Assembly: GCF_002836775.1 (NCBI RefSeq)
Contig: NZ_PJAQ01000065.1
Location: forward strand, 124,001-188,000
DNA: 64,000 nt
Source of the DNA: Colwellia sp. 12G3
GTDB taxonomy: Bacteria; Pseudomonadota; Gammaproteobacteria; Enterobacterales; Alteromonadaceae
Direction: 5' to 3'
The translations under genes were made by a program, and so were the position numbers. The notes below the pieces were generated by a model, which searched no databases, was not told the DNA's origin, and worked only from the letters and a program-made list of their open reading frames with translations. Positions 51,839 through 64,000 of this stretch are shown here, piece by piece; within the stretch, counting starts at the first letter, position 1, and every line of letters starts with the position of its first letter.

Positions 51839-53503
51839 ATGATTAAAATGGGCCTTAAAAATAAATTATTGTTATTAGCGTTATTACCACTAACTTTATT
51901 ACTCGTTAGTTTAATGGTTAGTACTTACTATTTAGAGTCAAAAAACCTTGAGGAAGATTTTCAATCATTTGAAGCTAAACTTCTCGAAGGTAAAAGGAAT
52001 TTATTAAAAACAGAAGTTGAAATTGCGATAAAAGTAGTCAATTACCAATTATCGTTAGGCGAAAAAGGTAATGTTAAAGACGCGTTAAGGGGGGTTACTT
52101 TCTCAAATAGTGGTTATTTTTTCATTTATGATAGTGAAGGAGTCAATATATTTCATGGTCTTAAACCTGAAGCCGAAGGTGAAAATCAAATTGATGCTAC
52201 AGACCCTAATGGCAAAAAATTAATTGTTGGTTTGCTAGATCAAGCAAAAAGAGGTGGAGGCTTTTTCTCATACCACTACCAAAAACCTAATGTTAGCCAA
52301 TTAGTTGAAAAAATGAGTTATGCCACCATGATTCCAAACACTAACTGGATGATAGGGACTGGTACCTACCTTGATGATGTTGAAAAAGAATTAACGAGTT
52401 ATCACCAAACCATGGCTCAGCACATGCGCGATAAAGCCATAACGATAGTATCAATTGCTGCCTTTTGGTTTTTGTTAACCGTTTTTTGTGTGTTATACGC
52501 AGCGGGCTCTATGGTAAAACCTATTACTAATATGCTCGATAATTTGCAGAGTATTGCAAAAGGTGAAGGTGACTTAACTAAGCGCTTACACGTTGATGGT
52601 AATGATGAAATCAGCCAATTAGGCGTTGCTTTTAATGAGTTTATCGAAAAATTACAAAATATTATTAAAAATGTGGCGAATGTCACGCAAGATGTAAAAT
52701 CCGCTTCTGCTGAAATTAATCAACAAACACAATTAATGGAAGGACAGCTTGGCCATCACAATAATGAAACAGAGCTGGTTGTCACTGCGATAACTGAAAT
52801 GTCTGCTACTTCAAGTGAAGTTGCTATGAACACTACTCAGGTTGCAGAGTCGACACAATCAGCAACTGAAGATGTTGCAAAAGCCCAAGAGTGTGTTGAT
52901 ACCTCATTAACCGAAGTCTCAAACTTAATGACTGAAATTAATACCGCGGCAGAGCAAATAAACTCGCTTAGCGAACAATCAAAGAAAATTAATAATGTTT
53001 TAACCGTCATAGGTGGTATCGCTGAACAAACAAACTTATTAGCCCTCAATGCTGCTATTGAAGCAGCTAGAGCGGGTGAGCAAGGGCGAGGATTTGCGGT
53101 AGTTGCCGATGAAGTTAGAAACTTAGCCAGTAGAACACAAGAGAGTACATTAGAGATAAATGAAATGTTAACTGGCTTGCATAATTTAGTCTCCGCTGCA
53201 GTGAGTACTATGGATGCAAGTCAGCAAAGCTGTAACCGGTCGGTTGAATCTTCTAGAGCTATTTCTGAGAGTTTAGGTGCTGTGACTACATCGGTCACTT
53301 CGATAAATGATATGAGTACTCAAATCGCTACGGCAGCTATGGAGCAATCGAGTGTTACAGAAGAAATAAATCGCAATGTGTTTGCCATCCAAGAAATTGT
53401 CAATGAATTAACAACATCTAGCCAAAGTACTTCAGCTATTGGTCAGAAACTAGCTCAAGATGGAGACAACCTTAGTGAACTTGTTGGCCAGTTTAAAGTT
53501 TAA
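51839..53503 (+). CDS. Methyl-accepting chemotaxis protein with sCache_2-type sensor
   Basis: 554 residues. Membrane segment 1 is at about 9-29. The single-Cache sensor (about 30-190) has [31 protein letters not shown] and [19 protein letters not shown], the typical end of sCache_2. Membrane segment 2 is at about 200-222, then HAMP ([20 protein letters not shown]), then the signalling coiled coil with [20 protein letters not shown]. No C-terminal pentapeptide is visible. sCache_2 proteins often sense short organic acids such as acetate or pyruvate. The gene is monocistronic. Confidence 0.93.
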
Positions 53504-53630: not shown

Positions 53631-54857
53631 TTATTTTCTAGCAACTAAATGAACTGTACTGGTTGAACGTTCTAAAAACGCACCTTCGCTGTAAGCAAAG
53701 TAATAAAGCCATAATTTTTTAAACGTTTCGTCATAGCCCAACTGAGATAGCGTAGACCATGACGCTAAAAAGTTATCTCGCCAATGCGCTAATGTTTTCG
53801 CGTAATCAAGGCCAATATCATCAAGGGACTCAACAACCAGTTCACTGTGGTCAGTAAGGTGTTGAGTAAGCACATTAATAGATGGTAAAAAACCACCAGG
53901 AAATATGTAACGTTGGATAAAATCAACATTACTCTTGTAGTAATTAAAACGCTGATCAGCAATAGTGATCGATTGAATAAGTAATTTCCCGCCTACTTTT
54001 AGTCGATCATTGCACTGCTTAAAGAAGCTAGGTAAATAATCAAAGCCAACAGCTTCTATCATCTCGATAGAAACCACTTTATCAAAGCTCCCCGTTAAAT
54101 CGCGGTAATCCTCTTTAAGCAAGGTTATCTTATCACTTAACCCTAGCCCTTCTACACGCGTTTTTGCATAGGAATATTGTGCATCTGAGATAGTGGTTGT
54201 CGTTACACGACAGCCATAATGCTGAGCTGCGTAAATAGCTAAACCACCCCAGCCAGTGCCAATTTCAAGTAAATGATCATCGGCATTTAGTGATAATCGT
54301 TGGCATATTGTTGCTAACTTATGCTGTTGAGCCTCATCTAACGATGCATTTTCTGTTGGATAGATTGCAGATGAGTACATCATGTCAGGGTCTAAGAATC
54401 GCGTATATAACTCATTACCTAAATCATAATGCGCCAATATATTACGCTTTGAACCTGATTGAGTATTTCTATTTTGCCAATGGCTAAGCGTATTTTTTAA
54501 CTTATTCAACCATGACTTATTACTTTCCAGTGCATCAGTTTGCTGCTGTGCTTTGGCAAAAATTCTAATGACATTGGTCAAATTAGGACTGCTCCACTTG
54601 CCATCAATAAATGCCTCGGCAGCTCCAATACTGCCGCCTTTTACAAAGTCTCGGTAAACGCTCGGATCGTGTATGTGTATTTTTCCTTTAATACTTTGCT
54701 CATCAAAACTCTGGGGGAAGTAAGAATGAACAGAGCCCTCAATGACTTCTAATTGACCATACGTAAACTTTGAAAAAAACCCCAAGACTAAACTACGGCA
54801 ACGCTTATCTAACCAGTTAGCCTCTTTTAATAATGTCACATCCTCAATATTTTCCAT
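53631..54857 (-). CDS. cfa: Cyclopropane-fatty-acid-synthase-like methyltransferase (UfaM/Cfa type)
   Basis: 408 residues. The SAM site is EIGTGWGGLAIYAAQHYG; a Cfa-type lipid/phosphate part precedes it (HYDLGNELYTRFLDPDMMYS) and VSIEMIEAVG follows. The N-terminal roughly 100 residues are the substrate-binding extension of Cfa proteins. It should add a methyl or methylene group to double bonds of membrane lipid acyl chains. As the last gene of the sigma-factor operon, next to DUF1365 and a flavin amine-oxidase-like gene, it resembles the furan fatty acid pathway of Rhodobacter, in which a Cfa-like enzyme (UfaM) does the first methylation. Confidence 0.9.
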   Translation of the reverse strand: MENIEDVTLLKEANWLDKRCRSLVLGFFSKFTYGQLEVIEGSVHSYFPQSFDEQSIKGKIHIHDPSVYRDFVKGGSIGAAEAFIDGKWSSPNLTNVIRIFAKAQQQTDALESNKSWLNKLKNTLSHWQNRNTQSGSKRNILAHYDLGNELYTRFLDPDMMYSSAIYPTENASLDEAQQHKLATICQRLSLNADDHLLEIGTGWGGLAIYAAQHYGCRVTTTTISDAQYSYAKTRVEGLGLSDKITLLKEDYRDLTGSFDKVVSIEMIEAVGFDYLPSFFKQCNDRLKVGGKLLIQSITIADQRFNYYKSNVDFIQRYIFPGGFLPSINVLTQHLTDHSELVVESLDDIGLDYAKTLAHWRDNFLASWSTLSQLGYDETFKKLWLYYFAYSEGAFLERSTSTVHLVARK

Positions 54858-54894
54858 TTTTATTCCCTATAGTTAGAGTTTTAACATCTACGAA

Positions 54895-55737
54895 CTAATC
54901 CGCTTTTTGATAACCAATAAAAGGTACACGTTTAACGAATAGTTTGAGTGCTTGCCAATAAATACTAACGACTACTTGCACCGTCATAACCGGTAATTGA
55001 CACCAAATTCGCAGTAAGCTGCTTTTAGTGAAAGGCTTTTTCCTCATCACTAAATTTACATCAAATAACTTAACTACCTTGCCACTTTTGTCATCAATAC
55101 TTTTGTTTTTAATATTAATTTGTAACTTATCGTCAATATGACACGGCGGTGTTACCTGCCAAAAATAAGTCATTGCTAAGTCCATAAACGGTGAAACTTG
55201 AAACATCTTTTTTGTCGTTTTATCGACTTCTACATTTAGCAAATCGATTAAATAATAATGACGTTCATTCCACGGTGTATTACTGACTTCTGCGAGCATT
55301 TGTGTGCATTTATCATGATGGTCGTAGCAAAAATAAAAATTAGCGGGACTAAAATAAATACCAAAACATCTAACTTGTGCCAGCATAACAATTCTTTTTA
55401 TATCGGCATGACCCGCTAATTCATGTACCTTACTTTTTATACGGTGCCTCAAAGGATAAGGATCACCTGCACGATTATCTTTTATAGAACCTTTTATAGA
55501 ACCTTTTGGAGAATCTTTTGGGGAGCTTTTCAGATAATCTTTTTCCACAAAACGTAATGGTCGATACCAAGAAAAGCCAAAAACACCAAAGCCACCTTGA
55601 GCATTTTCGACATCAGCAACATCAAGCGCCAGCATAAATAATCGATAATCAAAACTGTGCTTTTTAGGACTAAAGCGTCGATGTATCACATTTCCGAGGT
55701 AAATATGACTATGACTAAACGAATTAGGCATCTTCAT
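54895..55737 (-). CDS. DUF1365 family protein (UfaO-like)
   Basis: 280 residues. Family features are SHIYLGNVIHRRFSPKKHSF at the N-terminus, DYRLFMLALDVADVEN, then HRIKSKVHELAGHADIKRIV, FGIYFSPANFYFCYDHHDKC and WNERHYYLI. DUF1365 proteins appear next to amine-oxidase-like flavoproteins and Cfa-like methyltransferases; in Rhodobacter a member (UfaO) is reported to take part in furan fatty acid formation. A roughly 16-residue Ser/Lys/Gly/Pro repeat (KSSPKDSPKGSIKGSIKD) interrupts the domain at about 68-85 and is unusual. The start overlaps the end of the flavoprotein by 14 bases, so translation is coupled. Confidence 0.88.
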   Translation of the reverse strand: MKMPNSFSHSHIYLGNVIHRRFSPKKHSFDYRLFMLALDVADVENAQGGFGVFGFSWYRPLRFVEKDYLKSSPKDSPKGSIKGSIKDNRAGDPYPLRHRIKSKVHELAGHADIKRIVMLAQVRCFGIYFSPANFYFCYDHHDKCTQMLAEVSNTPWNERHYYLIDLLNVEVDKTTKKMFQVSPFMDLAMTYFWQVTPPCHIDDKLQINIKNKSIDDKSGKVVKLFDVNLVMRKKPFTKSSLLRIWCQLPVMTVQVVVSIYWQALKLFVKRVPFIGYQKAD

Positions 55738-56998
55738 AATCTACCGCTAGATAGCAATCAAAGCGCTTAGCCACCTCAACTGCGCTTCTGACACCGTCTT
55801 CATGGAAACCACTGTGCCAATAAGCGCCAGCAAAATGGGTATGATTATGTCCACAGATGGTATGCCTTTGCTGCTGTGCTTTTATTGAGCCGGCAGAAAA
55901 TACAGGATGGTGATAGGTAAACTCCCGTAATATCTCTTTGGGGTCAATGTCATCTTTTTGATTTAGGGTAACGCAAAAGGCATGTTTACTTTGAATGCCT
56001 TGCAATATATTCATGTTGTAAGTAACGCTAGCGGCCTTATTACGGTCATGGCTTAACTGATAGTTCCAACTTGCCCAAGCTTTTTTCCGTTTAGGTAACA
56101 GTTTTTTATCCGTATGTAATACCACCGTATTTTCGCTATAAGGCATTGCTGATAAAACCGAATTTTCCTCTTGGCTTGCATCCTCTAATAAGGCCAGTGC
56201 TTGATCTGAGTGACAAGCAATAACAACTTCATCAAAAGTCTGGCTAGTTGCCTTTTTAAAGTGTAAATGGACTTTATCATCACTGCGAGTAATACCTGTG
56301 ATGTCGGCATTAACGTGAATATTATCCTTAAAAGGTGCACACAATGGTTTTAAATAACTACGAGAACCTTCAGGAACGACATACCACTGGGGTCTGTCTG
56401 CAATATTTAACAAGCCATGGTTATGGAAAAACTTAACGAAAAATTTAAATTCAAAATCTTCCATTTGCGCTAATGAGCTAGACCAAATGGCCGCCCCCAT
56501 GGGCAAAATATAATGCTCCGCAAAAAAATCGCTAAAGTCATGTTCAGCTAAAAATGTGCCTAACGTTAAACCATCAATATATTCATCTTGTTCAAAAATA
56601 CTTTTACACAGTTTATTGAAGCGTAAAATCTCTTTAACTAACTTCCAAAACGTTGGCTTGAAAATATTACGTCGCTGGGCAAATAAGGTATCCAAATTAT
56701 GACCATTATATTCCAGCCCTGTTTGGCAATTGTGTACCGAGAAACTCATTTCAGTTGGGGTTTTTCCTATGCCTATTTCATCAAGTAAAGCTAAAAAGTT
56801 AGGATAGGTTTTATCATTAAAGACAATAAATCCGGTGTCTATGGCAAAATTTTCACCTTCTTTCTCAATATCGACCGTTGCCGTGTGTCCGCCAATACAG
56901 GCATTTCTCTCAAAGACGGTAACCTTATACTTTTTTGATAATAAATAAGCCGCGGTCAATCCGGAAATACCTGAGCCTATAATCGCAAAGTGCTTCAT
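55724..56998 (-). CDS. Flavin amine-oxidase-like enzyme (UfaD-like)
   Basis: 424 residues. The FAD motif AIIGSGISGLTAAYLLSKKY opens the protein, followed by FERNACIGGHTATVD and the C-terminal HFAGAYWHSGFHEDGVRSAV, where the second flavin contact lies. This group of NAD(P)/FAD amine-oxidase-like proteins is usually paired with DUF1365, and a Rhodobacter homologue (UfaD) is implicated in desaturating methylated fatty acid during furan formation. The start overlaps the SDR stop as ATGA. The 22-residue N-terminal helix region is intact, and length is normal. Confidence 0.9.
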   Translation of the reverse strand: MKHFAIIGSGISGLTAAYLLSKKYKVTVFERNACIGGHTATVDIEKEGENFAIDTGFIVFNDKTYPNFLALLDEIGIGKTPTEMSFSVHNCQTGLEYNGHNLDTLFAQRRNIFKPTFWKLVKEILRFNKLCKSIFEQDEYIDGLTLGTFLAEHDFSDFFAEHYILPMGAAIWSSSLAQMEDFEFKFFVKFFHNHGLLNIADRPQWYVVPEGSRSYLKPLCAPFKDNIHVNADITGITRSDDKVHLHFKKATSQTFDEVVIACHSDQALALLEDASQEENSVLSAMPYSENTVVLHTDKKLLPKRKKAWASWNYQLSHDRNKAASVTYNMNILQGIQSKHAFCVTLNQKDDIDPKEILREFTYHHPVFSAGSIKAQQQRHTICGHNHTHFAGAYWHSGFHEDGVRSAVEVAKRFDCYLAVDYEDA

Positions 56999-57735
56999 AC
57001 GCTGTCCTTATTGGTGCTATGTTTTCGGGTAATAAGTGCTTGCCATAAAGACGAAGGTAAAAAAGAAAAAAACGTCATAATAAAAGTCATTCGCTTGGGG
57101 AACTGAAGGTAATTTTTACGCTTTTCAATACCAATAAAAATACGCTTTGCCGCGGCTTCGCTGGTTAATAAAAAAGGCATGGTAAAGTTGTTTTTATCGG
57201 TTAAAGGCGTACTAACAAAACCTGGGTGTACCAAGGTAACGCCAATGCCATGCTCCACTAGATCAAGTCGTAAACTATTGGCTAAATAGTCCATACCTGC
57301 CTTTGAAGCGCCATAAGCTTCACTACGTGGAAAAGGTAATATAGTGGCACTTGAACTGACAAAAACCACTTGCCCACCTTTTTGCATTTTCGGTAAAAAA
57401 TATTGCAATAATGCACCTAAAGAAGAAAGATTGGTGTTGATAATATCGGAAAATAATTCACCATCGAAATTTTTTGCATCATCAATATAGCGACAATCAC
57501 CCGCATTTAAAATGAGTAGGTCTAGGGCTTTAATATCTTCAGCCGCAGATGCTATTTGCGTTGGCTGAGTAATATCAAAACAAAATGTTTTAAAAGCGCT
57601 TGAGTGAAGGTCAGCAAGTTTTTCTTGGTTTCGGCCACAGGCAATCACGTTAGCACCTTCCATAGCGTACTTTTCAAACAGTGCTAGGCCAATGCCTGAT
57701 GTTGCACCGGTAATCAAAACAGTTTTAGTACTCAT
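56995..57735 (-). CDS. Short-chain dehydrogenase/reductase (SDR)
   Basis: 246 residues from the ATG at 57735, which overlaps the upstream stop as TAATG; the GTG at 57762 would lie inside the previous gene. The NAD(P) motif is ITGATSGIGLAL. NAG in LILNAGD, Ser in VVFVSSSATI and YxxxK in YGASKAG complete the catalytic set. A hydrophobic C-terminus (MTFIMTFFSFLPSSLWQALI) suggests membrane association, which fits a lipid substrate. The substrate is not identified. It is gene six of the sigma-factor operon, between the NTF2-like protein and the flavoprotein. Confidence 0.9.
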   Translation of the reverse strand: MSTKTVLITGATSGIGLALFEKYAMEGANVIACGRNQEKLADLHSSAFKTFCFDITQPTQIASAAEDIKALDLLILNAGDCRYIDDAKNFDGELFSDIINTNLSSLGALLQYFLPKMQKGGQVVFVSSSATILPFPRSEAYGASKAGMDYLANSLRLDLVEHGIGVTLVHPGFVSTPLTDKNNFTMPFLLTSEAAAKRIFIGIEKRKNYLQFPKRMTFIMTFFSFLPSSLWQALITRKHSTNKDSV

Positions 57736-58220
57736 TAGTTCGCTGCCTTGGTTTTTATCCACTTAGTTATCTTACCCAATATCGGTAATTGTTCATAAAG
57801 CATGGCACCTAAATCAAGGTAATCACGATGATAAATAACCTTATCATCTGCTCCCTTAATATGTGAGGTACCCAGAACAACTACAGGTTTTCCCTTATTC
57901 AACTTAGGGTGTTGATAAGTCATGGTCCAAAAAAGTGACGCTTGCGAATCTTGCCAAATCACACCATCAATAACAAAATCACAAGAAGACAGGTTCTGAT
58001 AAAGATTTTTAAAGTACTGATATAAATTATCATAACCTTCTACTTGATGAATAGGATCAATAAATGTCACCTTGTCATGGTAAATTTCTGACAATAATTC
58101 CAAGCTATCCTTTGACAATTTTTGATAAACAACCACAAAGTTACTGAGCCAGAAAGGTGCATTTTGAAGGGTAAGTGCTAACGTATTACACTCTGTATCA
58201 AGTTCTGTATTACATTCCAT
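57735..58220 (-). CDS. NTF2-like (SnoaL-fold) protein
   Basis: 161 residues. The cone-shaped NTF2-like fold is suggested by VYQKLSKDSLELLSEIYHDK, VTFIDPIHQVEGYDNLYQYF, the strands SQASLFWTMTYQHPKLNK and HIKGADDKVIYHRDYLDLGA. Members act as small binding proteins or isomerases. It is always near the SDR/flavoprotein/DUF1365 set in related clusters, so it may carry or isomerise the lipid intermediate (inference). The stop overlaps the SDR start by one base. Confidence 0.85.
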   Translation of the reverse strand: MECNTELDTECNTLALTLQNAPFWLSNFVVVYQKLSKDSLELLSEIYHDKVTFIDPIHQVEGYDNLYQYFKNLYQNLSSCDFVIDGVIWQDSQASLFWTMTYQHPKLNKGKPVVVLGTSHIKGADDKVIYHRDYLDLGAMLYEQLPILGKITKWIKTKAAN

Positions 58221-58267
58221 TTTAATTACCTTAAAAACGGCGATTTTATCCTGTTAATAATCGCTAA

Positions 58268-59665
58268 TTACACTTTATAAAAAGCTAACGCTTTTATTCT
58301 TGCTTCTTTATGATCAACAATAGCTGGCCAATAAATATTAAGCTTATTATCATCGATAAACTGATGAGGAAAATGAATTTTCTTATCAGGAATACTTTCA
58401 AGTTCCGGTATATATTTACGGATGAACTCGCCCTTTGGATCAAAACGTTCACTTTGTCTTATCGGATTAAATATTCGAAAATAAGGTTGAGCATCACAAC
58501 CCGTGCTCGCCGCCCATTGCCAACCACCATTATTCGATGCTAAATCACCATCAATTAAGTGCTGCATAAAATATTTCTCACCTAAGCGCCAATCAATTAA
58601 TAAGTGTTTGGTCAGAAAGCTGGCGACCACCATACGAAGCCTATTATGCATCCACCCTGTTTGGTTTAACTGTCTCATTGCTGCATCAACCAGTGGATAA
58701 CCAGTTTTTCCCTGACACCATAAATTAAATAATTTGATGTCGTTATGCCACTGTAACCCTTGGTAATTCTCTTTATAACATTGATGTTTACATAATCGTT
58801 GCTCATGAAAAATCAGATTTCGATAAAACTCACGCCAAATAATCTCATTCAACCATGAAAATTCTTCACTGTCAGATGCCAGTAAAATATCAGGATATTT
58901 ATTAAGTAATAATCTAAGTACATAACGAGGACTAATAACACCAGCAGCTAAGTATGGCGAAATACCCGATGTCCCCTTAATTGATGGAATATCTCGATGG
59001 CTTTGGTAAGTACTAATTTTTTCTTGATAGAAAGTAGGTAATATTTGCTGCTCAAAAACATGCGCTAATGGCCAAGCATCAGATATGCGTTCTGGTTTTT
59101 CACTCTCAATATCTGTATTCGTTAACGTTGAGGTGGTATTACAAACTTTGCCTAAATAGTCAAAACCGGCTTGTTGTAAATAGGTTAACCAAGCACGCTT
59201 AAATGGTGTGAAAACTTTATACATAATACCTGACTGATTAAGGACTTTACCTTTGGGTACAATCACGTCAGCTTCAAATAAGGTTAATGCAGTACCACTA
59301 GCCTTTAATTCCAAATATAGCGCATTGTCACGTTGTTGCTCATTAAATTCAACCTCGCTATTAGCCACTATTTCAGTAATGTTATGCTGTCGACAATAAC
59401 GCTTTAAGTAATCTTTTTGTGTAATAAAATTATCTGCATCAATCAATTCGAGTTCAATATTGAGCAGTGCTAACTCTTTAACCAATGCGTAAGCATGACG
59501 TTTAATAAAATCTATTTTTATCGGCGACCAATCGTGTTGTTGCCATTGTTTTTCAGAGACAAAAAAAACGGCTTTACGTGATTGTTCTGAGTCAAATTGA
59601 CTCAGAAAGTAGTGTAAAGCCGGATTATCATGTGTTCGAAGGTCATTACGAAACCAAAGTAGCAA
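58268..59665 (-). CDS. phrB: Deoxyribodipyrimidine photolyase
   Basis: 465 residues starting at TTG (59665), with AAGGAAATAAA just before it; ATG alternatives would cut the first strand. The N-terminal antenna domain (LLWFRNDLRTHDNPAL) is followed by the FAD-binding helical domain with FSWLNEIIWREFYRNL, TGYPLVDAAMRQLNQTGWMH, NRLRMVVASFLTKHLLIDW and DGDLASNNGGWQWAAST. All residues of the flavin pocket and the Trp electron-transfer chain can be placed. It repairs cyclobutane pyrimidine dimers with light. Photolyase is also a target of the RpoE/ChrR system in Rhodobacter, and here it sits in the operon of that regulator. Confidence 0.95.
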   Translation of the reverse strand: MLLWFRNDLRTHDNPALHYFLSQFDSEQSRKAVFFVSEKQWQQHDWSPIKIDFIKRHAYALVKELALLNIELELIDADNFITQKDYLKRYCRQHNITEIVANSEVEFNEQQRDNALYLELKASGTALTLFEADVIVPKGKVLNQSGIMYKVFTPFKRAWLTYLQQAGFDYLGKVCNTTSTLTNTDIESEKPERISDAWPLAHVFEQQILPTFYQEKISTYQSHRDIPSIKGTSGISPYLAAGVISPRYVLRLLLNKYPDILLASDSEEFSWLNEIIWREFYRNLIFHEQRLCKHQCYKENYQGLQWHNDIKLFNLWCQGKTGYPLVDAAMRQLNQTGWMHNRLRMVVASFLTKHLLIDWRLGEKYFMQHLIDGDLASNNGGWQWAASTGCDAQPYFRIFNPIRQSERFDPKGEFIRKYIPELESIPDKKIHFPHQFIDDNKLNIYWPAIVDHKEARIKALAFYKV

Positions 59666-59753
59666 TTTATTTCCTTAAATATCTGACTGTTTCTAATTAA
59701 CTACATAACTTGTCTTTTAATTCACCACTTTTTAAGATGATGATTAATAACTG

Positions 59754-60713
59754 TTAATAAGCGTATCTTAATCTTAAAACATCTGGGTACGGAGACAAAT
59801 ATGCTTGCTTGGTTAAGTAATCTTTCGGGTGATTCAATAAGTAATGTTTAATCAACGTTAAGGGTGCCATTAACGGGATAAGACCTTCACGATAAGCATC
59901 AATTTGTTCACATAACTCTTTTCTTTCATTGGCTTGTAAGTGCTTTGAAAAATACCCTTGGATATGCGCAAGAGTATTAGCATGCTTTTTACGTGTCGCA
60001 ATAATTTTCAGTGCTGTCATTAACCCCAATATATATTGTGAAGCTTGCTCTTCAAGGGCTAAGTCGGCTCTGGCTAATAATTGTCCTAACTCTTTATAAG
60101 CGATTAAATCATGACTCATCACAGTATATTTGTAATGGCTATGAAAAGTGGTTAACTTGTGTTTAGTTAGCCCTGATTCAACGATCAATTGCCAGTGTTT
60201 ATAAGCAAATACTCTGGCGACAAAGTTTTCACGAATTAATGGATCATTTAAACGACCATTTTCTTCACAAGGTAATAATGGATTAGCGTCCATAATCTCC
60301 TTCGCAAAAGCGCCTATGCCATGTGAAGGTAAAGCATTACCTTCAGGGCTATAAATCTTCACTCTTTCCATACCGCAACTAGGGCTTTTAGCACAAAAGA
60401 TGTAACCCGTTAATGACTTAGTCATACTCGCTACCTTCTTGCCATAAGCCTTTAATGCCTCAGTTACATCACCACTACCATCTTTTTGAGAAACATGAAT
60501 CATATCACCACGCTTTATTTGACGAATAGTGGGTCTAGGAATAGGTAAACCTACCGCAACTTCTGGACAAAATGATTTATAGGTAACATGTGCCGAAAAT
60601 TCTTTAATACAAAAATGAGATGGCTTATTACTGGCATCGAAACGAACTTTTTCACCAATTAAACAAGCACTTATACCAATTTCAATATCTTTCTTATCAA
60701 CTGAATAAATCAT
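59754..60713 (-). CDS. DUF523-DUF1722 two-domain protein (YbgA-like)
   Basis: 319 residues. The first domain (about 1-150) is DUF523 with ISACLIGEKVRFDASNK, YKSFCPEVAVGLPIPRPTIR and IFCAKSPSCGMERVKIY; its conserved Cys (C16, CPEV, CAKSPSC) could bind a metal or be redox-active. The second (about 180-310) is DUF1722 with HKLTTFHSHYKYTVMSH and YFSKHLQANERKELCEQIDAYREGLIPLMAPL, in the YbgA part. The same fusion occurs next to photolyase in many proteobacteria, so a role in light or DNA-damage response is likely, but the function is unknown. Confidence 0.9.
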   Translation of the reverse strand: MIYSVDKKDIEIGISACLIGEKVRFDASNKPSHFCIKEFSAHVTYKSFCPEVAVGLPIPRPTIRQIKRGDMIHVSQKDGSGDVTEALKAYGKKVASMTKSLTGYIFCAKSPSCGMERVKIYSPEGNALPSHGIGAFAKEIMDANPLLPCEENGRLNDPLIRENFVARVFAYKHWQLIVESGLTKHKLTTFHSHYKYTVMSHDLIAYKELGQLLARADLALEEQASQYILGLMTALKIIATRKKHANTLAHIQGYFSKHLQANERKELCEQIDAYREGLIPLMAPLTLIKHYLLNHPKDYLTKQAYLSPYPDVLRLRYAY

Positions 60714-60762
60714 TATTATTTCCTTATCATTTCTGACTGTTAACTTTTAATAGCTTAATGAG

Positions 60763-61449
60763 CTAATAAATAAAAGAGCCTATCGGGTTAAGTAGTTTGT
60801 TTATACCTTGCGTGAAGTGAAGTGCATCATTAGCCACGGTATAACAAAGACAGCCATTAGTAGATACTGGGTGATGCTGATCAGAGCCATCAAGCATGAT
60901 AAAATCCCCCTTAACATACTCACCACTTTCATCATGAAATGATCCGGCTAATAACACGGTAAGCTCAAAGCCTTTATGAGTATGTTCAGGAACACCACCA
61001 CCGGGTTTAATATGTAATAAACTGGTGTGAATTTCATCTTCATTAAGTTGAATACGCGTTCTCGTTAACTTACCAATGTTAGCTTTTTTACTTAATACCA
61101 TATTGTTTAGTACCGATGGCAACATGTATTTCACACCATTAAACTCAATCGACTTTTCAGTTTTAGGTATCGCAATATCAATATCAGAAGACTGCACAAT
61201 ATCATCAATCATGTGATCAAAATTTATTGCTGCGATACTTTCTAGTGCGTCATTATCATCGACAATGAATCGGTCTAAAAACTCTTCTTCAAAACTATTT
61301 TCTGCCACTTGTTCAGTAAACTGAGCAATTTTCTGCTGACAAACAGCACACATATCTGCATGAATAGCGATACCAGCGGATAAAGATGCAGGTAAGTCAC
61401 CGTTAACAAATGCTTGAATTAGTTCAAATTTAGGGTGATGGTTAATCAT
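60763..61449 (-). CDS. chrR: Anti-sigma factor ChrR (zinc, cupin type)
   Basis: 228 residues. The N-terminal anti-sigma domain (about 1-85) has HADMCAVCQQ, the H-x3-C-x2-C zinc site of ChrR, plus an upstream His. The C-terminal cupin (about 130-228) has PEHTHKGFELTVLLAGSF, with the two His and the Glu of a metal site, and a later His in DQHHPVS. In Rhodobacter ChrR holds sigma E until singlet oxygen triggers release. The start overlaps the sigma factor gene by 8 bases, so the pair is made in fixed ratio. Confidence 0.93.
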   Translation of the reverse strand: MINHHPKFELIQAFVNGDLPASLSAGIAIHADMCAVCQQKIAQFTEQVAENSFEEEFLDRFIVDDNDALESIAAINFDHMIDDIVQSSDIDIAIPKTEKSIEFNGVKYMLPSVLNNMVLSKKANIGKLTRTRIQLNEDEIHTSLLHIKPGGGVPEHTHKGFELTVLLAGSFHDESGEYVKGDFIMLDGSDQHHPVSTNGCLCYTVANDALHFTQGINKLLNPIGSFIY

Positions 61450-62059
61450 GTTTTTCTCCTAACTGTACTTTAAGTTTACCAAGGGCTAATCGTAATCTAG
61501 ATTTAACGGTACCTAGTGGTAAACGAAGATGTGTGGCAAGTTGCTCTTGTGACATCTCCCTAAAATAAAAACCTTTTACTACGTCTTGTTGAGCTTGTGG
61601 TAATGCTTCAATAACGCTTAATAGATTCTCATTTTCTAAATGATCATCAAAGGTTTCACCTTCACTGCTCATGTTTTCAGCAACAGGCCAAATATCGTCA
61701 CTTAGATTATCTTCTTTATTGCCCTGTATTTTACGTAGCATATCAAAGGTAACGTTACGCATTACGGTATAAACCCAAGTGGTCGCAGCGCCTTTATCTT
61801 GATTAAAAAGGTGAGCTTTTCGCCATACGTTACTCATAGTATCTTGTACTACTTCATTGGCTTGCGCTTCATTGGGGAACTTAGCACGAGCAATACGTAA
61901 AATTTTTGGTGCGAAAAATTGAAACAAATGGGTAAAAGCTTGTTTGTCTCTAGTATGCGCAACGGAATTAAGCCATTGGCAAAGCTGTGGGTGATTTATT
62001 TTATCTGTCATACTAATAGATTTAGCATTAGTCGCTATGCTTAGCAAGTTAGTCTGCAT
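61442..62059 (-). CDS. rpoE: ECF sigma factor RpoE (ChrR-controlled)
   Basis: 205 residues from the ATG at 62059, which follows GGGGGA; a GTG one codon upstream is equally possible. Region 2 has FPNEAQANEVVQDTMSNVWR and the -10-binding part TTWVYTVMRNVTFDMLRKI; region 4 has LPQAQQDVVKGFYFREMSQE and LRLPLGTVKSRLRLALGKL for -35 binding. With the ChrR gene directly downstream it belongs to the ECF11 group, activated by singlet oxygen and some organic peroxides in Rhodobacter. It heads the nine-gene leftward operon, and a matching promoter precedes it, so it should activate its own unit. Confidence 0.93.
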   Translation of the reverse strand: MQTNLLSIATNAKSISMTDKINHPQLCQWLNSVAHTRDKQAFTHLFQFFAPKILRIARAKFPNEAQANEVVQDTMSNVWRKAHLFNQDKGAATTWVYTVMRNVTFDMLRKIQGNKEDNLSDDIWPVAENMSSEGETFDDHLENENLLSVIEALPQAQQDVVKGFYFREMSQEQLATHLRLPLGTVKSRLRLALGKLKVQLGEKHD

Positions 62060-62092
62060 CACTTTCGTTCCCCCTTTTATTAAACATGATTA

Positions 62093-62121
62093 GTTATACG
62101 TTCAATAAAAGAATAAGATCA
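62093..62121 (-). promoter_or_regulatory. Candidate sigma-E promoter of the rpoE-chrR operon
   Basis: On the minus strand TGATCT (62116-62121), 17 bases, then TATAAC (62093-62098), 34 bases before the rpoE start. The -35 is one base from the TGATCC reported for Rhodobacter sigma E. Autoregulation is inference. Confidence 0.6.
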
Positions 62122-62171: not shown

Positions 62172-62762
62172 CTAGAGGCTAGAATCAAAAATAACAGATT
62201 CGACAAACGCTTTAGCCTCTTTGAAGTTGTTGTTGACGACAAACTTATTTTTTACTCCCAAATCCAGTGGCAATATTTCTAACCATCTTGCTAAGACCCA
62301 AGGAGTATTATTTAACGATTTTTTCGTGTATAAATCATTGAGCCTTTTATTCTCAGAAAAAACAGTCTCTAATGATTTTGAGAGCTCTGCACCAGCATTA
62401 TCAATACTCGTTTCTGACCAGTGCTTAATAATACTGACTTCACCAAAATGTAGATTATCGCTATCTTGCTCTATGCTGTTAATTTCGATCAGTGACTTAC
62501 ATTTGACGTCAACTTCTAATACTCCGTCCTCACCTTGGTCAAAATTAATAATATCAACCCAACTTCCCCATAGGATTTGATCAACGATCGCATTGTCCTT
62601 AACTTTTTTGTCTTTTAACCAAATAACAAAACCTTGGCCTGATGAGGCAATGCTCACCATCTTTAAATAGCGAGGTTCAAATATTCTTAGTTTTGTAACC
62701 CCGCCAGGTAGTAAGAATATGGGTAACGGAAAAATAGGTAGCGTAATATTTGTCTGCTTCAT
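62172..62762 (-). CDS. LON substrate-binding domain protein
   Basis: 196 residues. The domain opens with LPIFPLPIFLLPGGVTKLRI and FEPRYLKMVS, the signature of the N-terminal Lon domain; later VDVKCKSLIEIN and the helical ARWLEILPLDLGVK follow. There is no ATPase or protease domain, so this is a standalone LON-domain protein of about 200 residues. These are widespread and of unknown role, possibly peptide or substrate binding. It lies upstream of the rpoE operon in the same direction with a 110-bp gap, which contains the sigma-E-like promoter. Confidence 0.9.
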   Translation of the reverse strand: MKQTNITLPIFPLPIFLLPGGVTKLRIFEPRYLKMVSIASSGQGFVIWLKDKKVKDNAIVDQILWGSWVDIINFDQGEDGVLEVDVKCKSLIEINSIEQDSDNLHFGEVSIIKHWSETSIDNAGAELSKSLETVFSENKRLNDLYTKKSLNNTPWVLARWLEILPLDLGVKNKFVVNNNFKEAKAFVESVIFDSSL

Positions 62763-62844
62763 CGGTATGCCACTTCTAAGTTGTATTGGTGATAACTCTA
62801 TATACGCAGTGAAGGGGGAAAATGATCAGTTTTAGAATAAAAAA

Positions 62845-62948: not shown

Positions 62949-64000
62949 CTAATCAAGAATAACAGTATCAATGACGTGGATAACCCCATTAGTGGTGTAG
63001 ATATCAGTAATTATCACTTTTGCACCGCCAATCATTAACATGCCAGTTTCAGCATCAATACTGACATCAATCATTGAAGAAGATGCCGTAGTTAATGAGC
63101 GACCATTAGCAGCATAGGCATCTAAAGCACTTAACGAACTTTCAGCAATAACATGCGTTAACAATACTTCAGTAAGCATCTCGGTATCAGCTAATAGCGC
63201 AGTTAAAGCATCAGCGTCAATTTTAGCAAAAGCGGCATTAGTTGGTGCAAATACAGTAAACATACTGTCTTCATCAGACAAAGTAGTCACTAAATCAGCA
63301 GCAGTAAGCGCGGTAACAAGGGTAGAGAAATTATCTGGGTCAGCTAAAGCGACTTCAACAATATTCATGGTGGGCTCAGCCATCATTCCTGGAGGCATAA
63401 TCACGTTATCAATTAAATGTACAACACCATTATCGGCAATCACGTTAGCAGCACTTATTTTAGCGCCATTAATGAAAAGCATTCCATCACTAAAAGAGAC
63501 TGAGGCTTTACTTTCATTAGCCATTACCGCCATATTATCCATTGATTGAGCAAGGGTAATAGCACCATCAGATAGAACTGTTCCAGCAATTACGTGATAC
63601 AACAAGATATTGCTTAATTGATCGCTAGTTAAGCTTTCTACAGTACCAGCAGGTAATTTAGCAAAGGCCGCGTTAGTCGGTGCAAACACAGTGTAATCAT
63701 TATCAAGGTTGGCTAAAACAGTATCCAGACCTGTTGATTGCAACGCTGAAACGAGTGTAGATAAATCACTATTGCCACTAGCCACTTCAACTAAGCTCAT
63801 GCCTGGTTTAGGTAATTCCACATCACCAAGAATAACTGCGTCAATTACATGAATAATGCCGTTGGTTGTATATATATCTTTCATTACAATATTAGCACCG
63901 CCAAACAATAATGTGTCGGTTGCCATATTAATGTTAAGTGCTACTTTCGCCATAGACGCAGTGTCAACCATAGCGCCACTCAACGCGAACGCATTAACTG
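62949..64000 (-). CDS. Fasciclin (FAS1) repeat protein, 5' part beyond the window
   Basis: The frame is open to the right edge, so the N-terminus and signal peptide lie outside; the TTG near 63983 is internal. Within about 350 visible residues there is the end of one FAS1 domain and two complete ones, each about 140 long. The repeats have YTVFAPTNAAFAKLPAGTVE and FTVFAPTNAAFAKIDADALT as first conserved block, and GVVHLIDNVIMPPG and GVIHVIDTVILD as last. FAS1 domains mediate cell-surface or matrix adhesion. The very regular repeats and lack of Cys suggest an exported adhesin. The closing terminator follows. Confidence 0.88.
   Translation of the reverse strand, partial: VNAFALSGAMVDTASMAKVALNINMATDTLLFGGANIVMKDIYTTNGIIHVIDAVILGDVELPKPGMSLVEVASGNSDLSTLVSALQSTGLDTVLANLDNDYTVFAPTNAAFAKLPAGTVESLTSDQLSNILLYHVIAGTVLSDGAITLAQSMDNMAVMANESKASVSFSDGMLFINGAKISAANVIADNGVVHLIDNVIMPPGMMAEPTMNIVEVALADPDNFSTLVTALTAADLVTTLSDEDSMFTVFAPTNAAFAKIDADALTALLADTEMLTEVLLTHVIAESSLSALDAYAANGRSLTTASSSMIDVSIDAETGMLMIGGAKVIITDIYTTNGVIHVIDTVILD

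What the first reader, a model, noticed from the sequence alone, without database searches (positions are those of the whole stretch)
53631..62121. Compact sigma-E/ChrR operon that joins photo-oxidative sensing, photolyase and likely furan fatty acid synthesis
Nine leftward genes are packed with overlaps (8, 14, 4 and 1 bases at four junctions): ECF sigma, ChrR, DUF523-DUF1722, photolyase, NTF2-like, SDR, flavin amine-oxidase-like, DUF1365 and Cfa-like methyltransferase. In Rhodobacter sphaeroides the sigma-E/ChrR pair responds to singlet oxygen, and, as I recall, UfaM, UfaD and UfaO (Cfa-like, amine-oxidase-like, DUF1365) make furan fatty acids that scavenge it. Here all the parts sit in one transcription unit in a non-phototroph-like marine bacterium. 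The SDR and NTF2-like proteins are unassigned steps that could extend or regenerate the pathway.
Basis: partly seen in the sequence, partly recalled or inferred. Interest (0 to 1): 0.8.

Follow-up and report, generated by a model that had tools for sequence, protein, structure and literature searches.

The report
Singlet-oxygen stress operon with furan-lipid genes
This is a real and widely conserved bacterial operon that joins a likely singlet-oxygen alarm switch to genes for furan-lipid synthesis and for repair of light-damaged DNA and tRNA; nearly all its parts are known from relatives such as Shewanella and Rhodobacter, and the fresh points are the single-operon packing, its tight co-inheritance and an unexplained Lon-domain partner.

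Summary
In detail: nine leftward genes (53631-62062) with overlaps of 8, 28 (or 1), 4 and 14 bases and a sigma-E-type promoter at 62121. Tests here: the Cfa-like enzyme groups with Cereibacter UfaM and away from cyclopropane synthases (100/100); UfaD and UfaO relatives sit beside rpoE-chrR in Cereibacter; of 118 family genomes 102 hold both ChrR and DUF1365, 15 neither, 1 DUF1365 only, 0 ChrR only. The nine-gene order is exact in 37 of 42 same-strand family loci. Furan lipid production and singlet-oxygen response in this host are inferred. Most novel reading kept: the Lon-domain protein governs ChrR proteolysis.

The parts
53631..54857 (-). UfaM-type SAM-dependent fatty-acyl methyltransferase (annotated Cfa/CMAS); the only CMAS match in the genome
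   Evidence: PF02353 E=1e-79; single genomic match; UfaM side of a 100/100 branch; A240/Q266 clade signature
54895..55737 (-). UfaO-like DUF1365 protein (candidate O2-using furan-forming enzyme)
   Evidence: PF07103 E=4.9e-69; 29% identity to the Cereibacter johrii protein beside rpoE-chrR; a UfaD relative adjacent in 30 of 30 phylum-wide DUF1365 loci examined
55724..56998 (-). UfaD-like FAD amine-oxidase-fold fatty-acyl desaturase candidate
   Evidence: PF01593; 37% identity to the Cereibacter johrii protein beside rpoE-chrR; solved relative LkcE E=5e-34
56995..57762 (-). short-chain dehydrogenase; 32% to an SDR in the ufaO-ufaD locus of Cereibacter johrii (RSP1087-like); function unknown; a later start is possible
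   Evidence: PF00106, PRK06101-like
57735..58220 (-). SnoaL/NTF2-like protein, function unknown
   Evidence: PF12680 E=3.2e-12; present in 42 of 42 same-strand family loci
58268..59665 (-). deoxyribodipyrimidine photolyase, PRK10674 type
   Evidence: NCBIfam PRK10674 510.9 bits over cut-off 506; FAD_binding_7 E=2.7e-82
59754..60713 (-). RudS-like TudS(DUF523)-DUF1722 fusion, candidate tRNA 4-thiouridine desulfidase; C17, C49, C113 at the spacing of the RudS cluster cysteines
   Evidence: PF04463+PF08349; TudS 6z92 E=3.3e-8; cysteine positions against the table of PMC11417400 (passages)
60763..61449 (-). ChrR zinc anti-sigma factor with C-terminal cupin
   Evidence: TIGR02451 164.4 bits, cut-off 124.5; R. 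sphaeroides ChrR 2z2s E=7.6e-14, cupin part strong, N-terminal part weak; H5, H30, C34, C37 present
61442..62062 (-). ECF sigma factor (sigma-E/RpoE2 type, GTG or next-codon ATG start)
   Evidence: PRK12526 over cut-off; R. sphaeroides sigma-E 2q1z E=3.5e-32
62097..62121 (-). sigma-E-type promoter TGATCT-N15-CGTA of the operon
   Evidence: a matching site upstream of the sigma gene in 47 of 58 loci against a background of 2.8%
62172..62762 (-). LON substrate-binding-domain-only protein, conserved partner upstream of the sigma gene
   Evidence: PF02190 E=1.5e-12; 7cay relative; in 92 of 102 ChrR-positive and 3 of 16 ChrR-negative family genomes
62803..62828 (-). separate sigma-E-type promoter TGATCA-N16-CGTA of the LON-domain gene
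62949..64000 (-). four-domain fasciclin (FAS1) lipoprotein-like gene; runs on to window coordinate 64793, with a TGATCC-N16-CGTA site just upstream
   Evidence: PF02469 E=1.1e-122, four stretches; ORF and motif

Best explanation
An autoregulated ECF11 sigma-E/ChrR photo-oxidative stress operon. ChrR holds sigma-E until singlet oxygen or an organic peroxide triggers loss of ChrR; freed sigma-E starts transcription at TGATC-N-CGTA promoters before the sigma gene, the LON-domain gene and the fasciclin gene. The operon then makes: UfaM, UfaD and UfaO, which would methylate, desaturate and oxygenate cis-vaccenoyl phospholipid chains to a methylated furan fatty acid that reacts with singlet oxygen and whose synthesis genes, as in R. 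sphaeroides, are needed for further ChrR turnover (a feedback loop); a photolyase for DNA; and a RudS-type enzyme that removes the UVA-sensitive 4-thiouridine from tRNA. Shown here: gene identities, order, promoter-like sites, clade, co-inheritance. Inferred from relatives: the signal, the lipid product, the feedback and the tRNA step. SDR, SnoaL and LON-domain roles are unknown.
For: Domains and cut-offs; sigma-E and ChrR similarity to solved R. sphaeroides proteins. UfaM on the Cereibacter side of a 100/100 branch, Cfa on the other. Residues 240/266 (E. coli numbering) A/Q in 60 of 60 operon, 4 of 4 SDR-linked, 4 of 4 Cereibacter-group and 26 of 26 phylum-sample DUF1365-linked proteins (one of the 26, genome G001, is also in the 60); H/H in 11 of 11 second CMAS copies and in E. 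coli Cfa. ChrR/DUF1365: 102 both, 15 neither, 1 and 0 single. Order exact in 37 of 42. Promoter motif at 47 of 58 sigma genes against 2.8% background. Passages read: UfaM/D/O chemistry PMC7380195; RSP_1090 needed for ChrR loss, RSP_1090 and RSP_1091 for full activation, PMC3818230; Shewanella RpoE2 drives chrR, SO_1987 and SO_3386 (head of the phrB-cfa operon) PMC4336711; RudS PMC11417400; Halomonas UfaM product in E. coli PMC12089945.
Against: No lipid, expression or light data exist for this host. UfaO is only 29% identical to the Cereibacter protein. In the tree the Cereibacter UfaMs sit on a long branch (4.07) and three of the four were flagged for odd composition. [quoted passage not shown] In the phylum sample 12 of 39 DUF1365 genomes lack ChrR at E<=1e-15 and 3 of 30 ChrR genomes lack DUF1365; R. 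capsulatus has rpoE-chrR without homologs of RSP_1087-1091 (PMC7074977); Pseudomonas runs similar genes under LitR (PMC9758184). In loci where the effector genes do not follow the sigma gene, the motif was found upstream of RudS in 3 of 8, SnoaL in 3 of 16 and UfaD in 0 of 17. One transcript was not shown.
Confidence: 0.82

Rival explanations
1. The Cfa-like enzyme makes ordinary cyclopropane fatty acids and the operon is a general oxidative-stress membrane-hardening operon; UfaD and UfaO do something else.
For: Shewanella and V. cholerae papers call the gene a cyclopropane synthase; it is the only CMAS match in the genome; cotton enzymes with the same Q266 are described as cyclopropane synthases; cyclic acids were detected in the Halomonas ufaM strain too.
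Against: Clade and signature are UfaM, with canonical Cfa forming a separate clade in the same family; UfaD and UfaO are adjacent; of 30 phylum-sample DUF1365 loci, 26 carry a UfaM-type CMAS within the short flank and all 30 a UfaD relative.
Confidence: 0.1
2. The sigma/ChrR pair responds mainly to organic or hydrogen peroxides or blue light in general rather than to singlet oxygen itself (compatible with the main explanation except for the signal).
For: Shewanella rpoE2-chrR is induced by H2O2 and its sigma mutant is peroxide sensitive; V. cholerae ChrR mediates a blue-light ROS response whose ROS type was not identified; organic peroxide also activates RpoE through ChrR in R. sphaeroides, by a different route.
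Against: UfaO (RSP_1090), which the singlet-oxygen route needs in R. sphaeroides, is present in 102 of 102 ChrR-positive family genomes.
Confidence: 0.3
3. The neighbours are functionally unrelated genes that merely share a convenient stress promoter.
For: RudS and photolyase are both missing from 3 of 42 same-strand loci and photolyase from one more; in four genomes ufaM and the SDR lie apart from ufaD-ufaO or survive without them.
Against: Joint presence and absence of ChrR and DUF1365, including losses inside eight genera; exact order in 37 of 42.
Confidence: 0.06

Closest known systems
Shewanella oneidensis MR-1 RpoE2-ChrR regulon (SO_1985-1987, SO_3386-3374)
   Same: Same sigma/ChrR pair with an 8-base overlap, Lon-domain gene next door with its own RpoE2 promoter, ybgA-phrB-...-cfa operon, TGATCC-N16-CGTA promoters (PMC4336711, passages; ybgA as DUF1722).
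   Different: There the regulator locus and the photolyase-cfa operon are apart; here they are one same-strand cluster. Furan lipids are not treated in the passages seen.
Rhodobacter sphaeroides sigma-E/ChrR core regulon (RSP1087-1093, RSP2143-2144)
   Same: rpoE, chrR, SDR, lipoprotein (a DUF3833 relative is in 64 of 80 Rhodobacteraceae loci), UfaO, UfaD, photolyase, UfaM; fasciclin RSP_1409 also in the RpoE regulon.
   Different: Several loci and divergent orientation; no LON-domain or SnoaL relative found in 80 Rhodobacteraceae rpoE loci, some of them short contigs.
Pseudomonas LitR light operons with phrB, SDR, FAD oxidoreductase, ufaM
   Same: Much the same effector genes, light induced (PMC9758184, passages).
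   Different: Controlled by LitR regulators, not by sigma-E/ChrR.
RudS tRNA 4-thiouridine desulfidases
   Same: TudS-DUF1722 fusion with three cysteines at matching spacing, often in light-responsive operons with photolyase (PMC11417400, passages).
   Different: The ChrR link is not mentioned in that paper's main text ('chrr' and 'sigma factor' 0 hits).

Membership tests
ECF11 sigma-E/ChrR system | ECF sigma factor close to R. sphaeroides sigma-E | tested here: met
   2q1z E=3.5e-32, next best solved ECF 5.5e-12; PRK12526 over cut-off
ECF11 sigma-E/ChrR system | ChrR with zinc HHCC anti-sigma domain and C-terminal cupin | tested here: met
   TIGR02451 over cut-off across 4-224; cupin part aligns strongly to 2z2s, N-terminal part weakly (i-E 4.3) but in register; H5, H30, C34, C37 present; ligand roles recalled
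ECF11 sigma-E/ChrR system | TGATC-N16-CGTA promoter upstream of own gene | tested here: met
   62121, with TGATCT and a spacer of 15 rather than TGATCC and 16
ECF11 sigma-E/ChrR system | activation by singlet oxygen through ChrR loss | not testable with these tools
   needs an experiment
UfaM/UfaD/UfaO furan fatty acid pathway | methyltransferase in the UfaM clade, not the Cfa clade | tested here: met
   100/100 split; the reference is Cereibacter johrii and relatives (sigma-E 97% to R. sphaeroides), not strain 2.4.1 itself
UfaM/UfaD/UfaO furan fatty acid pathway | adjacent UfaD and UfaO relatives | tested here: met
   37% and 29% to the Cereibacter johrii proteins beside rpoE-chrR
UfaM/UfaD/UfaO furan fatty acid pathway | furan fatty acid product | not testable with these tools
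   needs lipid analysis
RudS | TudS (DUF523) fused to DUF1722 | tested here: met
   both Pfam domains over cut-off
RudS | three cluster cysteines at the RudS spacing | tested here: met
   C17, C49, C113 against 12-18/44-50/110-115 in the RudS rows seen
RudS | tRNA 4-thiouridine removal | not testable with these tools
   needs an assay
Cyclopropane fatty acid synthase (Cfa) | bicarbonate ligand set E239, H266, Y317 (PMC11387697) | tested here: not met
   E and Y kept, H266 is Q; cotton enzymes described as cyclopropane synthases also have Q, so this is not decisive for product
Deoxyribodipyrimidine photolyase, PRK10674 type | curated equivalog score | tested here: met
   510.9 against 506

The most novel reading that the evidence does not exclude
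The LON-domain-only protein beside the sigma gene is the missing link in ChrR control in these bacteria: a free-standing Lon substrate-binding domain, made under its own sigma-E promoter, that binds ChrR damaged or altered by singlet oxygen or by oxidised furan lipid and either hands it to a housekeeping protease (positive feedback) or shields it (shut-off). It would answer how a cytoplasmic anti-sigma factor is degraded in response to singlet oxygen, a step that a 2019 review calls unresolved (PMC6852236, section read).
Probability: 0.15. Interest if true: 0.75.

Novelty: new member of a known kind. Interest (0 to 1): 0.42.

Why it matters
It shows the singlet-oxygen regulon of phototrophs packed, with its signal-lipid genes and repair enzymes, into one inherited unit in a family of Gammaproteobacteria whose member here has no reaction-centre match. 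It also ties membrane (furan lipid), DNA (photolyase) and tRNA (RudS) light defences together under one likely switch. If the Lon-domain partner acts on ChrR, the open question of how ChrR is degraded becomes directly testable by one gene deletion in Shewanella oneidensis MR-1.

Tried and rejected
Rejected: the SDR as a needed furan-pathway step (published RSP1087 deletion). Rejected as proof: Q266 as a sure sign of non-cyclopropane product, because cotton enzymes described as cyclopropane synthases have it too.

Led nowhere: the genome-wide motif scan (50 hits against 35 for the reversed control) is too noisy to name a regulon. Only the first 30 of its 50 hits became loci and only those were checked for promoter position; three sat in such a position. 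UfaO has no solved relative by sequence at E<=1. Its AlphaFold model (pLDDT 71.5, pTM 0.72) is a beta-rich fold with a long C-terminal helix, and Foldseek gave no PDB match at E<=0.001; YwiB (E 0.016, probability 0.98, TM 0.53 by target) is only a hint. The own-genome rhodopsin search had no ringing control. Two internal promoter-like matches lie inside phr (58442) and ufaO (55465) coding sequence and are treated as chance.

Dropped or partial sets: of 47 opposite-strand family loci 14 were fetched, of 42 same-strand loci all (41 plus the window). Of 75 Rhodobacteraceae UfaO sequences extracted, 74 went into the alignment for the fold (L126 left out by oversight). Of 46 LON-domain sequences found in fetched loci, 25 plus the window went into alignment A1. 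DUF1365 loci of the phylum search: the best 30 of 39 were examined. Of 30 ChrR-positive genomes in the phylum sample, the ChrR surroundings of 12 were fetched, besides family members already held. CMAS tree: 80 proteins, E. coli and Cereibacter group included, so not the CMAS of all 104 family genomes that have one. ChrR-positive means over the TIGR02451 cut-off; at E<=0.001, 110 of 118 family genomes have some match, the rest being weak cupin hits.
Full report
WHAT IS THERE. Junctions overlap by 8, 4 and 14 bases, and by 28 or 1 depending on the SDR start. The finding's end coordinate, 62121, is the start of a TGATCT-N15-CGTA site, 59 bases before the GTG start of the sigma ORF.

THE CLUSTER IS LARGER. 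Upstream come a LON substrate-binding-domain-only gene (62172-62762) with its own TGATCA-N16-CGTA site at 62828, then a four-domain fasciclin lipoprotein-like gene cut by the window edge (62949 to 64793), with a TGATCC-N16-CGTA site just upstream. Next, outside the window, come DUF3833, a chalcone-isomerase-like protein and DUF2878; no such site was found ahead of this trio. All fourteen genes point the same way. In R. sphaeroides the fasciclin gene RSP_1409 is listed in the RpoE regulon and strongly induced (PMC7074977, table passage), and the lipoprotein RSP1088 is a core-regulon gene (PMC5507510, passages). A DUF3833 relative lies in 64 of 80 Rhodobacteraceae rpoE loci (30% and E=4e-27 in Cereibacter johrii), so RSP1088 and this DUF3833 protein are probably the same family.

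IS IT MORE THAN CHANCE. In 118 genomes of the same family, ChrR (TIGR02451 over cut-off) is in 102 and DUF1365 in 103; both in 102, neither in 15, DUF1365 alone in 1, ChrR alone in 0. They lie within 20 kb on the same strand in 42, on opposite strands in 47, over 20 kb apart on one contig in 6, and on different contigs in 7. In all 42 same-strand loci (41 fetched plus the window) sigma, ChrR, SnoaL, SDR, UfaD, UfaO and UfaM are present; RudS in 39, photolyase in 38, LON in 34; the nine-gene order is exact in 37 and the ten-gene order with LON first in 30. A genome of another family in the same order, G185 (L272), has the same single operon. The sigma-upstream motif is found in 47 of 58 loci and the LON-upstream motif in 27 of 46 (in at least one only far upstream, and mostly in the same-strand type), against 2.8% of random 340-base stretches of the same loci. 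Against uniform regulation: where the effector genes do not follow the sigma gene, the motif was seen upstream of RudS in 3 of 8, SnoaL in 3 of 16 and UfaD in 0 of 17. Relatedness of the genomes makes these counts non-independent. Still, eight genera hold both ChrR-positive and ChrR-negative members, and in all eight DUF1365 went with ChrR.

IS THE CFA-LIKE PROTEIN A UFAM. To get references I searched with R. sphaeroides sigma-E, reached Cereibacter johrii (97% identical sigma-E) and three relatives, and took their only full-length CMAS gene, which lies beside a photolyase gene as RSP2144 lies beside RSP2143. In a tree of 80 proteins the 60 operon proteins, 4 SDR-linked ones and 4 Cereibacter-group UfaMs fall on one side of a 100/100 branch; E. 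coli Cfa and 11 second CMAS copies of the family fall on the other. The Cereibacter-group branch is long (4.07) and three of its rows have odd composition. At E. coli positions 240 and 266 the UfaM side has Ala and Gln in 68 of 68, the Cfa side His and His in 12 of 12; 26 of 26 DUF1365-linked CMAS proteins of the phylum sample also have Ala and Gln (one of them, from G001, is also among the 60). H266 is a bicarbonate ligand in Cfa (PMC11387697, passages). I do not claim that this alone sets the product: cotton enzymes described as cyclopropane synthases have Gln there (PMC3132707, passages), and an E. coli strain with Halomonas UfaM made 11-methyl-octadec-12-enoate but cyclic acids were detected in it too (PMC12089945, passages).

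UFAD, UFAO AND THE ACCESSORY GENES. The window's UfaD and UfaO are 37% and 29% identical to the Cereibacter johrii proteins beside rpoE-chrR. UfaM, UfaD and UfaO suffice for the furan acid in vivo, and deletions of RSP1087 (SDR), RSP1088 and RSP1089 leave the profile unchanged (PMC7380195, passages). Of 62 family loci with UfaD, SnoaL is found in 60 (not in L153, L205), SDR in 56 (not in L153, L161, L162, L170, L171, L203) and UfaM in 60 (not in L161, L162). SDR sits with ufaM, DUF2878, CHI-like and DUF3833 in L199, L200 and L202, and with ufaM and DUF2878 in L201, apart from ufaD-ufaO. In G106 that ufaM module survives without ChrR or DUF1365. So SnoaL leans to ufaD-ufaO and SDR to ufaM, with exceptions. 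UfaO has H19, D67, E150, H160 and Y162 among the residues conserved in at least 93% of 176 sequences, which would fit a metal site, but this is inference.

RUDS. DUF523-DUF1722 has both Pfam domains, aligns to TudS and has cysteines at 17, 49 and 113 among others, the spacing of RudS cluster cysteines. RudS erases tRNA 4-thiouridine and is often in light operons with photolyase (PMC11417400, abstract start, and passages). So the operon likely protects membrane, DNA and tRNA.

REGULATION. In R. sphaeroides, UfaO (RSP_1090) is needed for fast ChrR loss under singlet oxygen, without new protein synthesis; RSP_1090 and UfaD (RSP_1091) are both needed for full defence and activation; activation by organic peroxide did not require RSP_1090 (PMC3818230, passages). 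The review PMC6852236 (sections read) says direct ChrR cleavage is unreported and reports a proposal that peroxidised membrane olefins act as second messenger. Having lipid genes and switch in one operon fits such a loop.

THE LON-DOMAIN PARTNER. A profile from fetched loci finds it in 46 of 59 family sigma loci, in 2 of 12 phylum loci and in 0 of 80 Rhodobacteraceae loci. Genome-wide it is in 92 of 102 ChrR-positive and 3 of 16 ChrR-negative family genomes (Fisher p 7e-9, not corrected for kinship). In the eight mixed genera it vanished with ChrR in six and stayed in two (G013, G073). In Shewanella SO_1987, next to rpoE2, is induced by RpoE2 (PMC4336711). I know of no function for it; an adaptor or guard for ChrR is my boldest reading. 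Against it: R. sphaeroides degrades ChrR without such a neighbour, with DegS- and RseP-type proteases involved (PMC3818230, title and passages), and 10 ChrR-positive family genomes lack it.

WHAT IS KNOWN. The gene set is the ECF11 core regulon (Dufour 2008, seen only through citing papers; the paper is not held) and is close to the Shewanella RpoE2 regulon. [quoted passage not shown] Furan acids were reported from marine bacteria including Shewanella putrefaciens (seen as statement and titles). My ten paper searches listed no paper that, from titles, abstract starts and the passages read, describes the joined single operon; that is no proof of absence, since key papers are not held. So: a new member of a known kind, with a conserved compact layout.

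HOST. The window's genome (5.06 Mb) has no reaction-centre match. It was not named. Its family has 52 genera in the sample.

Holding the text against the calls changed these points: gene count fourteen, not thirteen; weak ChrR N-terminal alignment, motif failures in split loci, ChrR genomes without DUF1365, SnoaL/SDR exceptions and the long Cereibacter branch added; DUF3833 tested instead of recalled. Confidence was lowered by 0.01 for the motif failures.

Noticed in passing
window 62172-62762: LON substrate-binding-domain-only gene with its own sigma-E-type promoter; co-inherited with ChrR in the family.
   Followed up: yes
window 62949 to edge; L240:950-2794: Four-domain fasciclin lipoprotein-like gene with a TGATCC-N16-CGTA site just upstream; fasciclin genes are reported as RpoE targets in R. 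sphaeroides and Azospirillum.
   Followed up: partly
L240:3223-4841 (outside the window): DUF2878, chalcone-isomerase-like and DUF3833 genes upstream of the fasciclin gene; in 5 of 42 same-strand loci this trio instead follows ufaM.
   Followed up: partly
L284:6872-8287 (own genome, contig 14): DCC1-like gene and a PRK09009-like SDR (below its cut-off), divergent from a TIGR02450 Trp-rich gene, with sigma-E-type sites upstream of both units; may correspond to Shewanella SO_4170 (SDR beside photolyase-related SO_4169); I recognised no photolyase among the ORFs listed, only four of which were scanned.
   Followed up: partly
L285:5227-6105 (own genome, contig 3): TIGR01777-type epimerase gene with a sigma-E-type site 38 bases upstream.
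   Followed up: no
L199-L202: ufaM with SDR and DUF2878 (and CHI-like and DUF3833 in three of the four) as a locus apart from ufaD-ufaO; genome G106 keeps it without ChrR or DUF1365, so a UfaM-only methyl-branched lipid may exist there.
   Followed up: partly
G017, G045, G063, G083, G097, G111: Here the LON-domain gene lies not beside ChrR but about 19-24 kb from DUF1365 (coordinates).
   Followed up: no
window 58442 and 55465, minus strand: TGATCC-N16-CGTA matches inside the photolyase and ufaO coding sequences; probably chance.
   Followed up: no
window 51839-53503: Convergent chemoreceptor gene (Cache-HAMP-MCP) just past ufaM.
   Followed up: no
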